From: a virus
DNA: 64,000 nt
IMG/VR virus record: IMGVR_UViG_3300009008_000010
Span: 1-64,000 of that record
Strand: one strand, 5' to 3'
Part shown: in pieces, positions 27,313 through 41,349 of the stretch
How the letters are laid out: each line of letters starts with the position of its first letter
How positions within the stretch are numbered: position 1 is the first letter of the stretch
The notes under the pieces: generated by a model
Databases searched by the model: none
Seen by the model: only the letters and a program-made list of their open reading frames with translations
What the model was told of the DNA's origin: nothing
Made by a program: the position numbers and the translations under genes

Positions 27313-29373
27313 ATGACGAAACTAGCAGAACTCACTTCTCAATTTGATCGTCAACGTTTTCTTTCGTTGAATGAAGAGATTTCTTTTGACGAATATTTAG
27401 AGAAGTGTTGGGAGAGACCCAAAACCGTAAGGTCAGCGTACCAAAGAATATATGACATGATAATGTGCGCTGGCACTTCATCTTACAAAAGATACAGGAA
27501 GTCTTATACCTGTTATCACTTTTTCGATGACACAGAAGTGCCTGTGTTTTCTTTAGATGATACCAAGGATCAGTTTGTTAAATTCATTAGAGGGGCCGCA
27601 GGTGGCTTCGGTAGTGAAAAGAGACTACTCCTTCTACATGGCCCAGTAGGCTCAGCTAAGTCTACACTGTGCCGTCTTTTAAAGCGTGGGCTAGAAAGGT
27701 TTTCAAGGACCGACGATGGTGCTTGGTATACCTTCAAGTGGGTTAATTTACCAGAGGAATTGTTTGTTAAGGAACACGATATTTCCCCAATGAATGATGA
27801 GCCTCTGAAGCTGCTCACCCCTGATATAGCCCTGCCTTTCTTGCAAGACCTAAACAAAAGGCTTGTAGAAACTGTTGAAGACACCCGCTTGCATTATGAT
27901 CTTAAATTGGTTGGTTCTTTAAATCCAAGGTGCAAGTTTTACTTAGATGAACTTTTGAGGCTCCATGATGGAGATTTGAACAAAGTTCTTTCAGAACATG
28001 TTAGGGTAATTCGTAGGGTTCACTCTGAAGCAGATCGCACAGGTATCGGAACATTTGCTCCGAAAGACGAGAAAAACCAAGATTCCACTGAATTAAATGG
28101 TGACATTGCTTGGGATAAGATCAGCAAGTATGGTTCGGATTCCGATCCGAGGGCATTTAATTTTGATGGTGAATTCTGTGTGGGTTCTCGTGGTGTTGTA
28201 GAGTGGATTGAGGTCTTAAAACTGCAAAAAGAATTCCTATATGACTTGTTGAGTGCTACCCAAGAACAGTGTATCAAACCTAAAAAGTTCCCTCAGATTG
28301 GCATTGACACCGTTTTAATTGGTCACACCAATAATCCTGAATATAAAAAGCTCCAAGAAGATATTTACATGGAAGCATTCAGGGACAGAACAGTTAAGGT
28401 GGATGTTCCCTATCTGTTGGAAATATCACAAGAGAAGAAGATTTATGACCATGATTATGGCGAAGAGAAGGTTCAACAACATATCGCTCCGCACACTTTG
28501 GAAATGGCTGCTCTTTGGGGAGTTATAACCAGATTGAAGGAATGTGAGGCATGTGATGATCCTATCAAGTTGGCCAAATTATATGATGGTCAAGCACTGC
28601 CCGGTTGGACAGAAGACCGAGTTCGAGAAATTAAAGAGACTAGGGTAGATGAGGGCATGGGTGTGGGCATCAGTGCCCGTTACATCCAAGATGCTCTCTC
28701 TTGTTGCCTTAGCGATCACCACACCTATATCAACCCATTTATGTTGATTAACGAACTGGAACGTCGTCTAAGACACAGTTCGGTCTTTGCAGCAGATAAA
28801 GATTTGCTCAAACACCTGTTAGATTGCATTGATTCTGTTAAAAAGGAATTAGATGAAATTCTTAAAAATGAAGTCAAGAATGCTTTAATTTCTGATGAAA
28901 AAGCCGTTGTTAGACTTTGCACTAATTACATTGATAACTTAATGGCTTATATTGAAGGTTCTAAAGTTACGAATGAGTTCACAGGACGGGAAGAAGAGCC
29001 TAATGAAGCGTTAATGCGGAGTATTGAAGAAAAAATCAGAATCCCCGATACAGGGGCACATGATTTTCGTGTTATGATTCAAGGCTACATTGGCAAGTGT
29101 CACCACTTAAAAGAAGAGTTTACGTGGAAGTCCAATGATGATTTGAAAAGGGCTTTGGAAGCCAAACTGTATGAAGATACCAAGGATCACATTAAGTTGA
29201 GTGCTTTAAATGTCAAAGGTGCTTCAACTGTAGACCCTGACTTGCAAGAAAAGATCGATGTTATTAAGAAGAGGATGATTGAAAAATTTGGATACATCGA
29301 AGAATCTGCCACTGATGTTTTGAATTATGTTGGTAGTATTTTCGCTAGAGGCGAGTTAGCCAAGGAGGAGTAA
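27313..29373 (+). CDS. prkA: PrkA-like AAA+ serine protein kinase
   Basis: A 686-residue homologue of PrkA/YeaG. The AAA+ domain has the P-loop HGPVGSAKST (109-118), in the GPVG-x-x-KS form typical of PrkA, and the region DTVLIGHTNNPEYKKL with FRDRTVKVDVPY further on. The C-terminal half is the PrkA-specific helical domain. In bacteria PrkA is encoded with YeaH and SpoVR (YcgB) and acts in nitrogen or stress responses and sporulation; both partners follow here. Length is a little above cellular PrkA (about 640). A promoter lies 42 bases upstream. Kinase versus AAA+ protease activity of this family is debated, so the reaction is not certain. Confidence 0.92.
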   Translation: MTKLAELTSQFDRQRFLSLNEEISFDEYLEKCWERPKTVRSAYQRIYDMIMCAGTSSYKRYRKSYTCYHFFDDTEVPVFSLDDTKDQFVKFIRGAAGGFGSEKRLLLLHGPVGSAKSTLCRLLKRGLERFSRTDDGAWYTFKWVNLPEELFVKEHDISPMNDEPLKLLTPDIALPFLQDLNKRLVETVEDTRLHYDLKLVGSLNPRCKFYLDELLRLHDGDLNKVLSEHVRVIRRVHSEADRTGIGTFAPKDEKNQDSTELNGDIAWDKISKYGSDSDPRAFNFDGEFCVGSRGVVEWIEVLKLQKEFLYDLLSATQEQCIKPKKFPQIGIDTVLIGHTNNPEYKKLQEDIYMEAFRDRTVKVDVPYLLEISQEKKIYDHDYGEEKVQQHIAPHTLEMAALWGVITRLKECEACDDPIKLAKLYDGQALPGWTEDRVREIKETRVDEGMGVGISARYIQDALSCCLSDHHTYINPFMLINELERRLRHSSVFAADKDLLKHLLDCIDSVKKELDEILKNEVKNALISDEKAVVRLCTNYIDNLMAYIEGSKVTNEFTGREEEPNEALMRSIEEKIRIPDTGAHDFRVMIQGYIGKCHHLKEEFTWKSNDDLKRALEAKLYEDTKDHIKLSALNVKGASTVDPDLQEKIDVIKKRMIEKFGYIEESATDVLNYVGSIFARGELAKEE

Positions 29374-29377
29374 GGAA

Positions 29378-29647
29378 GTGGAAGTGAGCGACAATCAAAT
29401 GTTGTTTGATTGGGCTTATACTCAATATACCTGTGAGCCTATTGTGCTTTCGTTGGTCACATTAGGCAAAACAGTGTATGAAGTAAATATAAGCCCCACT
29501 ATTGCGCGTAAAGTGTTGGAATGGTATTTCAATAATTACGTTGACGAAATCAAGGATGAGGATTGGAGTGATAGTCTCCTTTGTCAAGCACTAGAGGAGT
29601 TCACACAAGAACACACCGATACAGGTCTAACAAAGGTAAATAAATGA
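29378..29647 (+). CDS. Small protein within the prkA cluster
   Basis: An 89-residue acidic protein with GTG as the likely start (29378), 4 bases after the prkA stop, and AAGGAGGAG as ribosome site. Not recognised. It sits between the prkA-like and yeaH-like genes and overlaps the latter by 4 bases, so it is an extra member of the operon not present in the usual bacterial arrangement. Confidence 0.6.
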   Translation: MEVSDNQMLFDWAYTQYTCEPIVLSLVTLGKTVYEVNISPTIARKVLEWYFNNYVDEIKDEDWSDSLLCQALEEFTQEHTDTGLTKVNK

Positions 29648-30855
29648 CACGTCGTATTGATGCAGATCATAAATATTTCCGAAAGGTAATAGAAAGAAAA
29701 GTTCGCAAGTCGTTAGACAGATATATCGACAAGGGCAGCATTTTTCGCAACAAGCCAAAAGGCGGCAAAATAGTTATTCCTATTGATCAAATTCACCAGC
29801 CTAAATTGGTTTATGGTGATAATAAAATAGGCGTAGGCCGTGGTCCTGGTAATAAAGGGGATGTGATTAGGCGTGATCCTCAACAGGGCAAAGGTGGAAA
29901 TCAAGCAGGCGAAGAACATGCGGACGGTGTGGAGGTCGTTGTCGATTTGGATGCTGTCTTGCGAGCTATTGGGGAAGATTTAGAACTTCCCAACTTGAAG
30001 CCCAAGGAAAGCAATCTTGAAGAAATAGAATATAAATATTGCAGCATTTCTAAAACAGGCCCTAATTCTCTTAGGCACACTAGAAAAACTCTCATGCAGG
30101 CACTCAAACGCAGGATTATGAGTGGTGAAGATGATGTTTTATATCAACTGCCTGGATTCCGCGAGTCGGTGCAATTAATTAGTCCCATTAGTGAAGATTT
30201 TAGATATAGACAGTATAAGGAGTTTCGGAAACCTGTTAGCAATGCTGTCATATTTTTTGCTAGGGATTGTTCGGGGTCTATGGGTGATGCCAAATGTGAG
30301 ATTGTGTCTGATATATCTTGGTGGCTTGATTTGTGGATACGCAGGTTTTATAAAAGAACAGAGAGAATCTATACAATCCACGATACTGAGGCTGAAATCT
30401 GTGACGAGGATAAATTCTATAGATACCGTCATGGAGGCGGGACAAGGTGTTCATCATCCTTGAAATTAATAAATCAAGAAATCAAAAATAGGTTCCCGCC
30501 CCACAAGTGGAATATTTATTTGTTTTACTTCAGTGATGGGGATAACATAGACCATGATAATGCAGAGTTCTGTCGTGTTTTAAAAGAAGACCTGACGCCC
30601 CAAATTGTTAATTTAACTGGTATTACTCAGGTCTTGTGTTGGAATTACAAATTTAGTCTTAAAAAGTCAATAGACACAGAATTAAGTTCTGGAGGTTTAA
30701 GGCCAGAGTTTGTTAGGACTGTCAGTGTGGGTTCTGAAGAAGAGAAGAAAGGCTATTCAATCTCAGGTGGCACTTTAACGGATGAACAGCGAGACCAATA
30801 CACAAAAAGAGTTTTAAAATCCCTACTAGGCAAGCTAGAAAAAGCAGGTAAATAA
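29644..30855 (+). CDS. yeaH: YeaH/YhbH-family (DUF444) VWA-domain protein
   Basis: A 403-residue protein of the DUF444 family. The N-terminal part matches YhbH/YeaH (basic start, RGPGNKGDVI glycine-rich segment). The VWA-like C-terminal half carries a MIDAS motif DCSGSMG at 208-214, then YRYRHGGGTRCSSSL and LFYFSDGDN. Such proteins are thought to work with PrkA and SpoVR, possibly as metal-dependent adaptors. It overlaps the spoVR start by 1 base. Length is close to the cellular family (about 390-430). Confidence 0.92.
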   Translation: MTRRIDADHKYFRKVIERKVRKSLDRYIDKGSIFRNKPKGGKIVIPIDQIHQPKLVYGDNKIGVGRGPGNKGDVIRRDPQQGKGGNQAGEEHADGVEVVVDLDAVLRAIGEDLELPNLKPKESNLEEIEYKYCSISKTGPNSLRHTRKTLMQALKRRIMSGEDDVLYQLPGFRESVQLISPISEDFRYRQYKEFRKPVSNAVIFFARDCSGSMGDAKCEIVSDISWWLDLWIRRFYKRTERIYTIHDTEAEICDEDKFYRYRHGGGTRCSSSLKLINQEIKNRFPPHKWNIYLFYFSDGDNIDHDNAEFCRVLKEDLTPQIVNLTGITQVLCWNYKFSLKKSIDTELSSGGLRPEFVRTVSVGSEEEKKGYSISGGTLTDEQRDQYTKRVLKSLLGKLEKAGK

Positions 30856-32432
30856 TGGTTTCTAAAGTTTTTGCGGGATCGCCAACATTAGAAGGCGACA
30901 ATACGGTTCCTGGCGCATCAATGCCAGAAGAGCTTAAGGCTGTAATCCCTCAAATTTTTCAAGCTGTAAGGGATTACGGTTGTGATTTTTACCCCACCAT
31001 CATCGAGATGTTGAGAGATGATGAAATCAGTGAGATTGTGGCTTATAACGGATTCCCTGTTCGTTACCATCACTGGTCGTTTGGGGCAACTTATGAAGAA
31101 ATGCAGATAAGCTATGAGCTTGCCATCAGGCGTGTCAGTGAGCTTGTCATTAACACAGACCCTTGTTTTATTTATTGTTTGAGCAGCAACACCCTTATAG
31201 ACAACATAACCTGTGTATCGCACGCTCTGGGCCATAACGACTTTTTTAAAAATAACATACACTTCCAACACACCGACCGTAACGCCATGAATCGGTTGGC
31301 TAATAATGGCAGTCGTATTAATGAGTATATGGATAGGTGGGGGCGAGAGCGAGTAACGGCTTTTATAGATTGTGTTATGAGGCTGAACACCCTTGTCGAT
31401 CCTGTTAAAGGGTATAAAAGAGTTAGGCAAAAGCCTTTACAGAAAATCAAGGATGAAAGAAAGTATTACGAACCCAGAAGGCTGAAGGTTGATGAAGACC
31501 ATATGGAAAAGTGGATAAACCCGGAAGGTTGGGTTGAACATGAACATGAAATAATTAGAGATAAAGAGGCGGCAGATAACATAGATTTATTTGAGGAGCC
31601 TACTCGTGATGTTTTAGGATTTTTGAGGGATAATGCCCCATTGAAGAATTGGCAGGCAGATATTTTGTCTATGCTCTATGATGAGGCTCTTTATTTTTAC
31701 CCTCAAAGGAAGACTAAGATGGCTAACGAGGGTTGGGCTTCAAAGATTGATTATGAATTGATGGCAAAGCAAGGTCTTGTTGATTTAGGCCCAGGGGGCA
31801 TAGTTGAATATGCCAAGGATAAAATGGGTGTTCTGGGAGGAAAATACTCCATGAACCCCTACAAGCTAGGTTTTTGTTTATTTAATGATATTGAGGATAG
31901 GTGGAACAAGGGGAAATTCGGTCCAGAGTGGGCGAAGTGCCCCATACCAGATAAAAAAGATTGGGATAAAAAGCTAGGCTTAGGCAAAGATAAGATTTTT
32001 GAAGTTCGCCAGTTTTATGATGATTACATGATGATCAATGATTTCTTCACCGAGGACTTTTGTAACGAAAATGAATTTTTCGAGTGGGAGAAGAACGCTA
32101 AGGGCGAATACGTGATAGCTAGTAGGGATCATAGTGTAATTAAAAACAAGTTGCTGAGACATTATCTGAATCGTGGTCTCCCTGACATAAGGCTTGCCGA
32201 CCCTAATTTCAGGGGCAGGGGGCAGTTTTTATTGGAGCATGTTTGGGAAGGTCGAGAATTGTATCATCCTTATATGAAAGCAGTGCTTACATCTGTTAGG
32301 ACACTGTGGAATGATGCTGTGTTTTTGGCTACTAGAGATGCTGATGGCGAGGAAATAGTTTGCATGTGTGATTCGGATAATGAAGATGATGTAGAAATTA
32401 TTAGTAGAGAAAAGTTTGAAAAGGATTGGTAG
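30855..32432 (+). CDS. spoVR: SpoVR-family protein
   Basis: A 525-residue member of the SpoVR/YcgB family. Hallmarks are NGFPVRYHHWSFGATYEEM, ELVINTDPCFIYCLSSN, HALGHNDFFKNNIHF and RINEYMDRWGRERV, in the cellular order. The biochemical function of SpoVR is not known; in Bacillus it affects spore cortex formation and in enterobacteria it sits beside yeaH and yeaG. Length is normal (470-530). It is the third gene of the complete prkA-yeaH-spoVR set. Confidence 0.93.
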   Translation: MVSKVFAGSPTLEGDNTVPGASMPEELKAVIPQIFQAVRDYGCDFYPTIIEMLRDDEISEIVAYNGFPVRYHHWSFGATYEEMQISYELAIRRVSELVINTDPCFIYCLSSNTLIDNITCVSHALGHNDFFKNNIHFQHTDRNAMNRLANNGSRINEYMDRWGRERVTAFIDCVMRLNTLVDPVKGYKRVRQKPLQKIKDERKYYEPRRLKVDEDHMEKWINPEGWVEHEHEIIRDKEAADNIDLFEEPTRDVLGFLRDNAPLKNWQADILSMLYDEALYFYPQRKTKMANEGWASKIDYELMAKQGLVDLGPGGIVEYAKDKMGVLGGKYSMNPYKLGFCLFNDIEDRWNKGKFGPEWAKCPIPDKKDWDKKLGLGKDKIFEVRQFYDDYMMINDFFTEDFCNENEFFEWEKNAKGEYVIASRDHSVIKNKLLRHYLNRGLPDIRLADPNFRGRGQFLLEHVWEGRELYHPYMKAVLTSVRTLWNDAVFLATRDADGEEIVCMCDSDNEDDVEIISREKFEKDW

Positions 32433-33205: not shown

Positions 33206-33456
33206 CAGAAGGTGAACTACTACTGACAGACGAATTCCTACAGTTTTCCGGGGACATTGCAGCACTTATCCAAGAAAAGAAAACCCTCAAAGACGATTTT
33301 AAGAAAGTCTATGAGGAGTTTCAAACCAAACTCAAATCGGTAGATCAAAAAGCTGATAAACGATCTAAAGAGTTTGATGAGTGGAAGAAATCTAAAACTA
33401 AAGATCCTGTGCCGCACATGGAAGAACCTCCTAAATCCAAGACGGGTAAAAAGTGA
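33202..33456 (+). CDS. Small coiled-coil protein
   Basis: An 84-residue charged helical protein (LKDDFKKVYEEFQTKLKSVD) with a Lys/Pro-rich end. It overlaps the ClpP-like gene and the polymerase gene by 4 bases each. Function unknown. Confidence 0.6.
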   Translation: MTEGELLLTDEFLQFSGDIAALIQEKKTLKDDFKKVYEEFQTKLKSVDQKADKRSKEFDEWKKSKTKDPVPHMEEPPKSKTGKK

Positions 33457-34844
33457 AACACGAAATTTGTGGCGTTGAGCATCTTCACAGGCACACCCAT
33501 TTCAGTCTCCTAGACGGGTATGCGCATCCTGAAGAATATGCAGCCTATTCTAAATTGGTGAATCAACAATTCTTGTGCATTTCGGATCACGGGCAGATGG
33601 GGGCAATCCCTCGTCAAATAGCCACCTGTGAGAAAAACAGCGTGCATCCGATATTTGCGTGTGAACTGTATGTAAACCCCCTACAGCCAGCTTGTCGAAA
33701 TAACGATGAATATAAAAAATTCATGGATGACCTGGATGAAGAACAAAAGCGTATTCTTAAAAAGAGCTTCCATCTATTAGCCATAGCTCATAGCGATGAA
33801 GGTTATAAAAATCTCGTTAATCTGAGTTCATGGGCGTGGGTTAATGGTAAGGGCGGTCGCCCCAGAAGGCCCCGTGTGAACCATGAACAGCTTCTTAAAT
33901 ATAAAGAAGGTATCACGTTTAGCTCGGCCTGCTACAACAGTGAAATAGCTCAGGCTTTTGATGGTTTCTATGGTGGAAATGAGAATCGTGAAGCCGGTTT
34001 CGAGATGCTTGAAAAATATCTGGCGATGTTTGGAGAGCATTTTTTCTTAGAACTCATGCTTCTTGATTTTAAATCTCAAAAGCCTTATGATAAGTTCCTA
34101 GTTGAAGCTCATGCTAAATATGGCACTCCCGTAGTTCTTACAAATGATTGCCATTATTGCTTTCAAGATGATTCTAAAATGCAAAGATACTCCTTGATGA
34201 TCCAGACTGGAAAAACAATCAAGGAGATTACAGAGGTTCTGTCTCAAAACCCAGATGCGGATATGTTTGAACTTCAAGACACAAACCTCTGGATGAAGTC
34301 TGAAGATGAAATTAACGCTATGTGGGAAGCTAATTATATGGATACTGTCCCATATGAGATTTTTAAAGAAGCTAAAAGGAATAGTGTTAGAATATGCGAA
34401 AACGCTAAGGGAGTAGAACTGGATCGTAGTATGAAGTTGCCGGATTATCCTGATGCTGATGCTAAATTCAAAGAAGCTATAGGAATAGGCTTTAAAGAAA
34501 GAGGGCTTCCTCCCAACAGAACATACCTTGGTAGAATCAAAGAAGAATACGCATTGATTTGCAGGAAAGGCTTTTCTAGTTATTTCTTAATTCAAAAAGA
34601 AATGGTTGATGAAGCTAGAAGAATTTGTCCTGAAATCTTAGGTTGGGGCAACGGCTGTGAAGCCGTTGGACCGGGGCGCGGTAGTGCGGTTGGTGCTTTG
34701 GTTTGTTATTGTTTAGGAATTACAGACGTAGATCCTATAAAACATGACCTGCTGTTTTCTCGTTTCTTAAGTGAATCTAGGGGCGGTAAGCAGATGAAAC
34801 TTAGATTTGTGAATGTAGATCCAATTTTAGAAGGAGCGGCTTGA
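33453..34844 (+). CDS. dnaE: DNA polymerase III alpha (DnaE), N-terminal part
   Basis: A 463-residue N-terminal part of a family C polymerase. The PHP domain starts VEHLHRHTHFSLLDG (residues 8-22), with CISDHGQMGA and LTNDCHYC further on. The beginning of the palm is present: FSSYFLIQKEMVDEA and the nucleotide-binding loop GPGRGSAVGALVCYCLGI (about 406-424), then DPIKHDLLFSRFLSE. The protein stops just before the catalytic-Asp motif, ending NVDPILEGAA. The rest of the enzyme is at 44431. No intein-like sequence is seen at the end. The stop overlaps the AAA+ start (TGATG). The catalytic part is in a separate gene about 9.6 kb away. Confidence 0.9.
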   Translation: MKHEICGVEHLHRHTHFSLLDGYAHPEEYAAYSKLVNQQFLCISDHGQMGAIPRQIATCEKNSVHPIFACELYVNPLQPACRNNDEYKKFMDDLDEEQKRILKKSFHLLAIAHSDEGYKNLVNLSSWAWVNGKGGRPRRPRVNHEQLLKYKEGITFSSACYNSEIAQAFDGFYGGNENREAGFEMLEKYLAMFGEHFFLELMLLDFKSQKPYDKFLVEAHAKYGTPVVLTNDCHYCFQDDSKMQRYSLMIQTGKTIKEITEVLSQNPDADMFELQDTNLWMKSEDEINAMWEANYMDTVPYEIFKEAKRNSVRICENAKGVELDRSMKLPDYPDADAKFKEAIGIGFKERGLPPNRTYLGRIKEEYALICRKGFSSYFLIQKEMVDEARRICPEILGWGNGCEAVGPGRGSAVGALVCYCLGITDVDPIKHDLLFSRFLSESRGGKQMKLRFVNVDPILEGAA

Positions 34845-40445: not shown

Positions 40446-40946
40446 AAAATTAACTACAGCTTCACAGAAATCCTTCAATTCTTGATCGTCCCATGTGTTT
40501 TTTGCATATTGGGCCATAAGCGATACAAATTGAATGTTGTCTTTCGTATATGGTTTAGATGAATCTATACGATCAAGGCTGGCTCTGTCAGGTGTTCTCG
40601 GTAAAGATTCCCTTGTGTTTTTTGGAGTTTTTAATTTCCAACCAGTGTAGGGACATTTGCCGTTTTGTTTTTCCCATTGTTTTTTTAAATCTTCTACTGT
40701 GATGAAAAACGGTTTTCTTTTGCAGTTGCGTAAGATTTTCATAAAAAAACGAAATGGAGAAAGATCGTCTGCCTTATTATCGGGGATAAGATTTTCAGGA
40801 TTGGCAGGCAGGTGTGTGTGGTTGTCTTTTCCCACACATTGAAGTGAGCAGTAATTTCTTCTTCCTAATTTTTTGCTTCGATTGACTTCTGCTTTTCTTC
40901 TTTTGAATTCTTTTCCGCAAGTTTCACAAGTTAGTTGTATGTACAT
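40434..40946 (-). CDS. HNH homing endonuclease-like protein downstream of tmRNA
   Basis: A 170-residue protein. The N-terminal zinc element is CETCGKEFKRRKAEVNRS...CSLQC. The C-terminal region has the free-standing HNH pattern: KCPYTGWKL, RASLDRIDSSKPYTKDNIQFVS and KNTWDDQELKDFCEAVV. Its C-terminal HNH half is related to the gene at 56578 (LDRIDSSK-x-Y-x-x-x-N-x-Q). I chose the ATG at 40946; its GGAGG ribosome site lies inside the tmRNA terminator hairpin, so translation may depend on readthrough or on unfolding of that hairpin. An alternative ATG is at 40961. Confidence 0.75.
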   Translation of the reverse strand: MYIQLTCETCGKEFKRRKAEVNRSKKLGRRNYCSLQCVGKDNHTHLPANPENLIPDNKADDLSPFRFFMKILRNCKRKPFFITVEDLKKQWEKQNGKCPYTGWKLKTPKNTRESLPRTPDRASLDRIDSSKPYTKDNIQFVSLMAQYAKNTWDDQELKDFCEAVVNFNPS

Positions 40947-40985
40947 AAAAAACGCCTCCATGCCATTTATATAGTATGGAGGCGT
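40947..40985 (-). terminator. Terminator after the tmRNA
   Basis: ACGCCTCCAT (minus strand, 40985-40976) pairs with ATGGAGGCGT (40961-40952) in a perfect 10-bp stem with a 14-base loop, followed by T residues. The left arm repeats the last bases of the tmRNA (CGCCTCCA), and the right arm carries the ribosome site of the HNH gene. Confidence 0.8.
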
Positions 40986-40996
40986 CAGTTTTGAAG

Positions 40997-41349
40997 TGGA
41001 GGCGGTGGGCTATGCTCCCACGTCCAGTCTATCTATCCCCAAAGCGTCTACGTGTGTAGTTTATTGCTTGTGTCTCGCTTCATGGTGTTGCAACAAACAA
41101 AAGCGCCAATCAGCCAGCAACATCTTGTCTTACTTAGGTCGTCGTTGCAGGAACCTAAGAGTGGCCAACTTTTGCGACTAGACTTCAGACCCCGTTAGCT
41201 AAGGGTTCTTTGTCCAGGGCTACTGTTACGCAGCCAGTTGAAGTGGTCTTTCGACAACTAAATTATTGATCAAGTTTTTACGTGGCCCCTTGATCAACCA
41301 CGACACGCGACTTTGGCTCAACGATACCTGTCGAACCTAATTCGCCCCC
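40997..41349 (-). ncRNA. ssrA: Transfer-messenger RNA (tmRNA)
   Basis: The minus strand from 41349 reads GGGGGCGAATTAGGTTCGAC, the conserved tmRNA 5' end; GGGGGCG pairs with CGCCTCC near 41004-40998 to form a 7-bp acceptor stem with one G-T pair, and A is the discriminator. The CCA end is not encoded. After TTAGTT the resume codon appears to be GTC (41255-41253), giving the tag VERPLQLAA and a TAA at 41228-41226; the LAA end is the classical degradation signal. Predicted length is about 353 bases, near the bacterial norm. The T-arm stem (GTGGG/CCCAC) is kept, but its loop reads AGCATAG instead of the usual TTCAANT type. It tags proteins on stalled ribosomes for destruction. It lies 9 bases after a lipoprotein gene and in front of an HNH gene, so it is probably cut from a longer transcript. 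Confidence 0.92.

What the first reader, a model, noticed from the sequence alone, without database searches (positions are those of the whole stretch)
40997..41349. Phage tmRNA with tag VERPLQLAA and an aberrant T-loop
A minus-strand tmRNA has the canonical 5' end (GGGGGCG...GGTTCGAC), a 7-bp acceptor stem, a tag frame ending LAA-stop and near-normal length, but its T-loop is AGCATAG in place of the conserved TTCAA-type loop, and CCA is not encoded. Phage tmRNAs are known but rare; a T-loop change would affect folding and binding of EF-Tu/SmpB-like partners.
Basis: partly seen in the sequence, partly recalled or inferred. Interest (0 to 1): 0.85.

Follow-up and report, generated by a model that had tools for sequence, protein, structure and literature searches.

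The report
Phage tmRNA with swapped elbow pair
A large phage carries a complete tmRNA (the RNA that frees stuck ribosomes and tags their proteins) whose odd T-loop is not damage: it is one half of a matched change in the D- and T-loops that make the RNA's elbow, a change that many phages and some bacteria have made repeatedly and always with both halves together.

Summary
The tmRNA is real. RF00023 matches over its full length (113 bits, E 2.4e-43) at 40994-41349 on the minus strand; ARAGORN misses it. The 7-bp acceptor with G3.U70, the tag VERPLQLAA-stop, the T-loop AGCATAG and the missing CCA are all confirmed. In exhaustive fixed-spacing scans of IMG/VR, A18+G55 occurs in 21 contigs, A18+U55 in 0 and G18+G55 in 0; a capped scan open to all four combinations gave 111 G18/U55 and 9 A18/G55. 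The same elbow is in the Rfam consensus of alphaproteobacterial permuted tmRNA and in some uncultured Clostridia. With the elbow masked, the window's tmRNA is 79% identical to that of a 527-kb phage with an ordinary elbow, so the elbow was swapped in place; trees need several such swaps. Best reading: a working phage tmRNA with a compensated elbow, probably depending on host SmpB. The strict 18-55 covariation and repeated phage swaps were not found in the literature I could search. No SmpB signature was found; hosts are unknown.

The parts
40998..41349 (-). tmRNA (ssrA) gene, 352 nt, one-piece, 5' end at 41349
   Evidence: RF00023 113 bits, E 2.4e-43, model 1-374; paired acceptor and T-stem
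41343..41349 (-). acceptor stem 5' strand GGGGGCG (G3 of the G3.U70 alanine identity pair)
   Evidence: 7 of 7 pairs with 40998-41004
41330..41342 (-). D-loop region AATTAGGTTCGAC; A18 equivalent at 41338, G19 at 41337
   Evidence: ungapped in the Infernal alignment to the consensus GG; same AG class in other A18 tmRNAs
41226..41255 (-). tag reading frame VERPLQLAA-stop, preceded by TAGTT
   Evidence: translation; mRNA-like part of the RF00023 alignment
41005..41021 (-). T-arm: stem GTGGG/CCCAC, loop AGCATAG at 41010-41016 (A54 G55 C56 A57 U58)
   Evidence: 54/58 and 18/55 covariation
40998..41004 (-). acceptor stem 3' strand CGCCTCC (U70); discriminator A at 40997, CCA not encoded (CTT follows)
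40947..40985 (-). intrinsic-terminator-like hairpin ACGCCTCCAT/ATGGAGGCGT with 14-nt loop and T run, just after the tmRNA
27313..32432 (+). PrkA, DUF444/YhbH and SpoVR genes; the SpoVR gene neighbours the tmRNA gene in related phages
   Evidence: Pfam; SpoVR and tmRNA in the same records in related phages

Best explanation
It is a functional one-piece phage tmRNA with a compensated elbow. In place of G18.U55 and U54.A58, the D- and T-loops use A18.G55 with A54/U58, while G19-C56 and a purine at 57 are kept. The T-loop turn goes from the UNR type (U55 C56 R57) to the GNR type (G55 C56 R57), probably with A18 paired to G55 in a purine-purine pair; that geometry is inferred. The RNA is presumably charged with alanine through G3.U70, given CCA by a host or phage nucleotidyltransferase, bound by host SmpB and EF-Tu, and used in trans-translation during infection to free stalled ribosomes and add (A)VERPLQLAA. 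Shown: the gene, its parts, covariation, swap in place, and no SmpB gene in the available record. Inferred: expression, charging, tagging, pair geometry, dependence on host SmpB.
For: Full-length RF00023 match with G3.U70, LAA tag and terminator. Exhaustive IMG/VR scans at fixed spacing: A18+G55 21, A18+U55 0, G18+G55 0; capped scan open to all four: 111 G18/U55 and 9 A18/G55. Independent check by T-arm alone in 297 Clostridia-order genomes: every true tmRNA T-arm with G55 had AG in the D-loop. Positions 54/58 are G/G, U/A or A/U in all phage A18 types, and U/A in all 130 canonical ones; TGCAA loops keep U54/A58 while 18/55 change, so 18-55 is a separate unit. Swap in place: elbow-masked body 78.9% identical over 270 nt to the canonical-elbow tmRNA of a 527-kb phage; another pair is 94.9% identical over 275 nt. 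Trees: at least 10 changes forced by well-supported branches on tmRNA bodies, at least 4 by parsimony on SpoVR. No SmpB gene in the record; 30 of 32 tmRNA phage records lack one.
Against: No expression, charging or tagging data. No second read set or contig covers the T-arm: the near-identical contig L010 ends at 40939. The window's exact A54/U58 loop was not found in any other phage. In the window the D-loop also has a GG one base later, so A18 rests on the ungapped frame and on class members without GG. Strict independent-pair testing on starred branches gives only 2 pairs.
Confidence: 0.82

Rival explanations
1. The elbow variant is an adaptation to the host's trans-translation partners (SmpB, RNase P, T-loop modification enzymes): phages that move to hosts using the A18/G55 elbow change theirs to match. 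This is a stronger form of the best explanation.
For: The same elbow is in the alphaproteobacterial permuted tmRNA consensus and in some Clostridia; repeated swaps within phage groups; nearly all these phage records lack SmpB; literature says D/T-loop interaction is needed for SmpB binding (PMC3968760).
Against: No clean SmpB residue separates A18 from G18 bacteria: the longer hairpin near the elbow contact also occurs in Thermus and other canonical species. Hosts of these phages are unknown.
Confidence: 0.35
2. The T-loop has decayed and the gene is a dying pseudogene.
For: The T-loop departs from the usual TTCRA and ARAGORN fails.
Against: Acceptor, T-stem, tag frame and G3.U70 are intact and D-loop, T-loop and 54/58 changes are matched in the same way as in 21 other phage contigs. 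ARAGORN also misses all 6 other A18 one-piece phage tmRNAs tested and 6 of 19 canonical ones.
Confidence: 0.04
3. Sequencing or assembly error in the T-loop.
For: No second contig covers 41010-41016.
Against: An error would not also place A at 18; the same class of loop occurs in many independent contigs and bacterial genomes.
Confidence: 0.01
4. A decoy that titrates SmpB and blocks host trans-translation, as proposed in the literature for the TLD-only tmRNA of mycobacteriophage DS6A.
For: Such phage RNAs are reported (PMC4131195, PMC11915505).
Against: This one keeps the whole mRNA-like part, an LAA tag and stop, as do its relatives.
Confidence: 0.06
5. The tmRNA was taken whole from an alphaproteobacterial or clostridial host with this elbow.
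For: Elbow type shared with those bacteria.
Against: The gene is one-piece, not permuted; its elbow-masked body matches canonical-elbow phage tmRNAs best (79% to L093, 71% to L095) and the Clostridia tmRNAs in the set were not among its best matches.
Confidence: 0.04

Closest known systems
tmRNA of jumbo phage IMGVR_UViG_3300005613_000001 (G039, locus L093)
   Same: One-piece phage tmRNA near SpoVR, body 78.9% identical over 270 nt with the elbow masked, no CCA
   Different: Ordinary elbow: D-loop AATTTGGTTTCGAC, T-loop TTCGAGT
alpha_tmRNA, Rfam RF01849 (permuted two-piece tmRNA of Alphaproteobacteria)
   Same: Consensus D-loop UAGGAUCGAC (A18-G19) and T-loop GGCGGUA (G55-C56-R57)
   Different: Gene is circularly permuted and two-piece; 54/58 is G/G rather than A/U
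One-piece tmRNA of uncultured Clostridia (Candidatus Caccovivens and relatives, L235-L250 without L239)
   Same: A18 with T-loop AGCRU.., the only other A54/U58 case found
   Different: Longer, CCA encoded, different tag, body not similar
Phage tmRNAs of huge phages (Al-Shayeb et al. 2020, PMC7162821) and phage-encoded tmRNA in general
   Same: Phage-borne tmRNA in large genomes
   Different: That survey used ARAGORN, which missed all seven A18/G55 one-piece phage tmRNAs tested here

Membership tests
tmRNA, RF00023 (one-piece) | Covariance model match above gathering score over the whole model | tested here: met
   113 bits against 47, positions 1-374
tmRNA, RF00023 (one-piece) | 7-bp acceptor stem with G3.U70 and discriminator A for alanine charging | tested here: met
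   GGGGGCG/CGCCTCC then A
tmRNA, RF00023 (one-piece) | Internal tag reading frame ending in small hydrophobic residues and a stop | tested here: met
   VERPLQLAA*
tmRNA, RF00023 (one-piece) | tRNA-like domain with T-arm and a D-loop lacking a stem | tested here: met
   5-bp T-stem with 7-nt loop; D-loop segment aligned
tmRNA, RF00023 (one-piece) | Typical but not defining: UUCRA T-loop and G18-G19 D-loop | tested here: not met
   AGCATAG with A18-G19; tmRNAs of Alphaproteobacteria also depart here, so this does not exclude membership
tmRNA, RF00023 (one-piece) | Four pseudoknots | tested here: inconclusive
   The model aligns the pseudoknot helices it contains, several with mismatches; pseudoknot pairing not tested
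tmRNA, RF00023 (one-piece) | Works with SmpB in trans-translation | not testable with these tools
   No SmpB gene in the record; function needs an experiment
alpha_tmRNA, RF01849 | Circularly permuted gene, two-piece mature RNA | tested here: not met
   Gene order 5' acceptor, tag, T-arm, 3' acceptor in one stretch
alpha_tmRNA, RF01849 | A18/G55 elbow (seen in the consensus) | tested here: met

The most novel reading that the evidence does not exclude
tmRNAs exist in two exclusive elbow types (G18.U55 and A18.G55), and phages switch type repeatedly to match the trans-translation machinery of new hosts, so the elbow type of a phage tmRNA is a readable host marker and A18.G55 may be a partly separate tmRNA-partner recognition code.
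Probability: 0.3. Interest if true: 0.72.

Novelty: new variant of a known kind. Interest (0 to 1): 0.52.

Why it matters
G18.U55 is among the most conserved contacts of tRNA-like RNAs. A natural, repeated, all-or-nothing swap of that pair in otherwise very similar tmRNAs gives ready-made pairs (for example L475 and L437, 95% identical bodies) to test how the elbow folds and how SmpB reads it. It also means ARAGORN-based surveys undercount phage tmRNAs of this type.

Tried and rejected
Blastn of the window tmRNA and of four other A18 tmRNAs against INPHARED: no match, so no isolate host. Megablast of window 33000-57000 against phages: no match. Exact and near-exact T-arm patterns for the window's own loop in IMG/VR: none. 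SmpB alignment of A18 against G18 bacteria: no discriminating residue; the extra hairpin residue is also in Thermus. Host link to the Clostridia group: DNA hits were acidic low-complexity coding repeats and short AT-rich matches, not evidence. The possibility that the window keeps G18-G19 with a one-base deletion was considered; the distance from 18-19 to the TCGA motif is nearly constant in canonical members and several class members have no GG at all, so A18 is preferred. A regex count that seemed to show 32 A18/U55 cases was an artefact of lazy matching on A-GG; the fixed-frame counts are.

Full report
Observation. The minus-strand tmRNA is real and complete. Rfam RF00023 matches 40994-41349 over all model positions (113 bits, gathering score 47, E 2.4e-43). 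The acceptor GGGGGCG/CGCCTCC pairs throughout with G3.U70, the T-stem is GTGGG/CCCAC, and the T-loop is AGCATAG. The tag frame at 41226-41255 reads VERPLQLAA-stop. The discriminator A is followed by CTT, so CCA is not encoded, and a hairpin followed by a T run lies directly downstream. ARAGORN reports nothing. The window is part of a 120,240-base virus record with 31 tRNAs called by ARAGORN; nine of the ten tRNAs whose alignments were shown have GGUUC at the T-loop and the tenth CGUUC.

Context. The 525-aa protein at 30855-32432 is SpoVR, and PrkA and DUF444 (YhbH) precede it. Relatives of this SpoVR occur in 75 IMG/VR loci, some in records of 300-527 kb. Of 50 such records 29 carry a tmRNA above the RF00023 cut-off, and in the loci that hold both genes the tmRNA lies about 3-10 kb from the SpoVR start. 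So tmRNA is a common gene of this phage group, and lack of CCA is the rule there.

The T-loop is half of a pair. Reading D-loops and T-loops together shows two types. Ordinary members have G18-G19 with U54 U55 C56 R57 A58. The window and others have A18-G19 with N54 G55 C56 R57 N58. Three tests follow. (b) Exhaustive scans for single combinations: A18+G55 21 contigs, A18+U55 0, G18+G55 0. (c) In 297 genomes of a Clostridia order, a pattern on the T-arm alone found nine true tmRNA T-arms with G55; every one had AG in the D-loop. Positions 54/58 behave likewise: G/G, U/A or A/U in phage A18 types, U/A in all 130 canonical ones. TGCAA loops change 18/55 while keeping U54/A58 and look like the intermediate step.

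Known elsewhere. The Rfam consensus for the permuted alphaproteobacterial tmRNA (RF01849), displayed when it matched virus contig L157, has D-loop UAGGAUCGAC and T-loop GGCGGUA, the same elbow. A 2005 comparative study noted G in these T-loop positions in Caulobacter and a jakobid mitochondrion (PMC1168896); I found no mention of the matching D-loop change in the papers I could search. A genome scan for AGCRT loops found 15 genomes, nearly all uncultured Clostridia, with one-piece tmRNAs of the A18 type. The window's A54/U58 form was otherwise seen only there, although that scan could by design find only A54/U58 forms.

Swapped in place. With the elbow masked, the window tmRNA is 78.9% identical over 270 nt to that of the 527-kb phage G039, which has an ordinary elbow; that phage is also the nearest by SpoVR. 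The clearest pair is L475 (A18/G55) and L437 (G18/U55), 94.9% identical over 275 nt. Tree counts: at least 4 changes on the SpoVR tree; 20 by parsimony and at least 10 forced by well-supported branches on the tree of tmRNA bodies. On the stricter independent-pairs count only 2 pairs rest on starred branches, 10 on the best tree, so the number of swaps is uncertain though more than one is secure.

How it most likely works. The known elbow contact is G18 with U55 and G19 with C56 (PMC7912444). Keeping G19-C56 and R57 while changing 18/55 to A/G turns the UNR-type T-loop turn into a GNR type, which can be closed by a purine pair A18.G55. This geometry is inference. The rest of the RNA is that of a tagging tmRNA. 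No SmpB gene is in the record and 30 of 32 tmRNA phage records lack one, so host SmpB is the likely partner; most of these records are fragments, so absence is not proof. CCA could be added by the host, or by phage enzymes: 6 of 8 related records tested, including G039, hold a nucleotidyltransferase-family match, though the window's own fragment does not.

What is not shown. I looked for an SmpB signature that follows elbow type and did not find a clean one. Hosts are unknown: no isolate phage relatives of the tmRNAs were found, and DNA similarity to the Clostridia group was low-complexity only. The near-identical contig L010 ends 55 nt before the tmRNA. Host tuning therefore remains a rival of moderate weight, not a result.

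Verdict. The broader result, strict 18-55 covariation with repeated natural swaps in phages, is the interesting part.

Noticed in passing
L008 and L009 tRNAs (record positions about 92,000-115,400) and window 40994-40997: 28 of 30 phage tRNAs have CT directly after the discriminator base instead of CCA, and so does the tmRNA; 18 of 22 tmRNAs of the related phage group read ACTN. This may be a shared 3'-processing signature.
   Followed up: partly
window 27313-32432: Phage-borne PrkA, DUF444 (YhbH) and SpoVR genes in a row, an arrangement resembling the bacterial stress operon; SpoVR recurs in many large phages.
   Followed up: partly
L052, L053, L055, L056, L058, L060-L062, L068, L069, L071-L078, L080, L083: SpoVR open frames of 928-1375 aa in several phages, with the match broken in the middle, suggesting one or two inteins or other in-frame insertions.
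   Followed up: no
window 33453-34844 and 44431-47292: DNA polymerase III alpha appears split: PHP plus N-terminal part in one frame, the rest about 10 kb away.
   Followed up: no
L111 and L113: Two related phage tmRNAs are interrupted in the T-loop in a way that looks like a group I intron, a form known in bacterial tmRNA genes.
   Followed up: no
L157:331-828: A 7-kb virus contig with an alpha-type permuted tmRNA next to a glutamine riboswitch, the arrangement reported for phage Melnitz (PMC9004378).
   Followed up: partly
G303, G292, G135, G204, G313, G081, G109, G114, G086: Clostridia genomes with TGCAA T-loops and A18, likely the intermediate form between the ordinary and the fully changed elbow.
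   Followed up: yes
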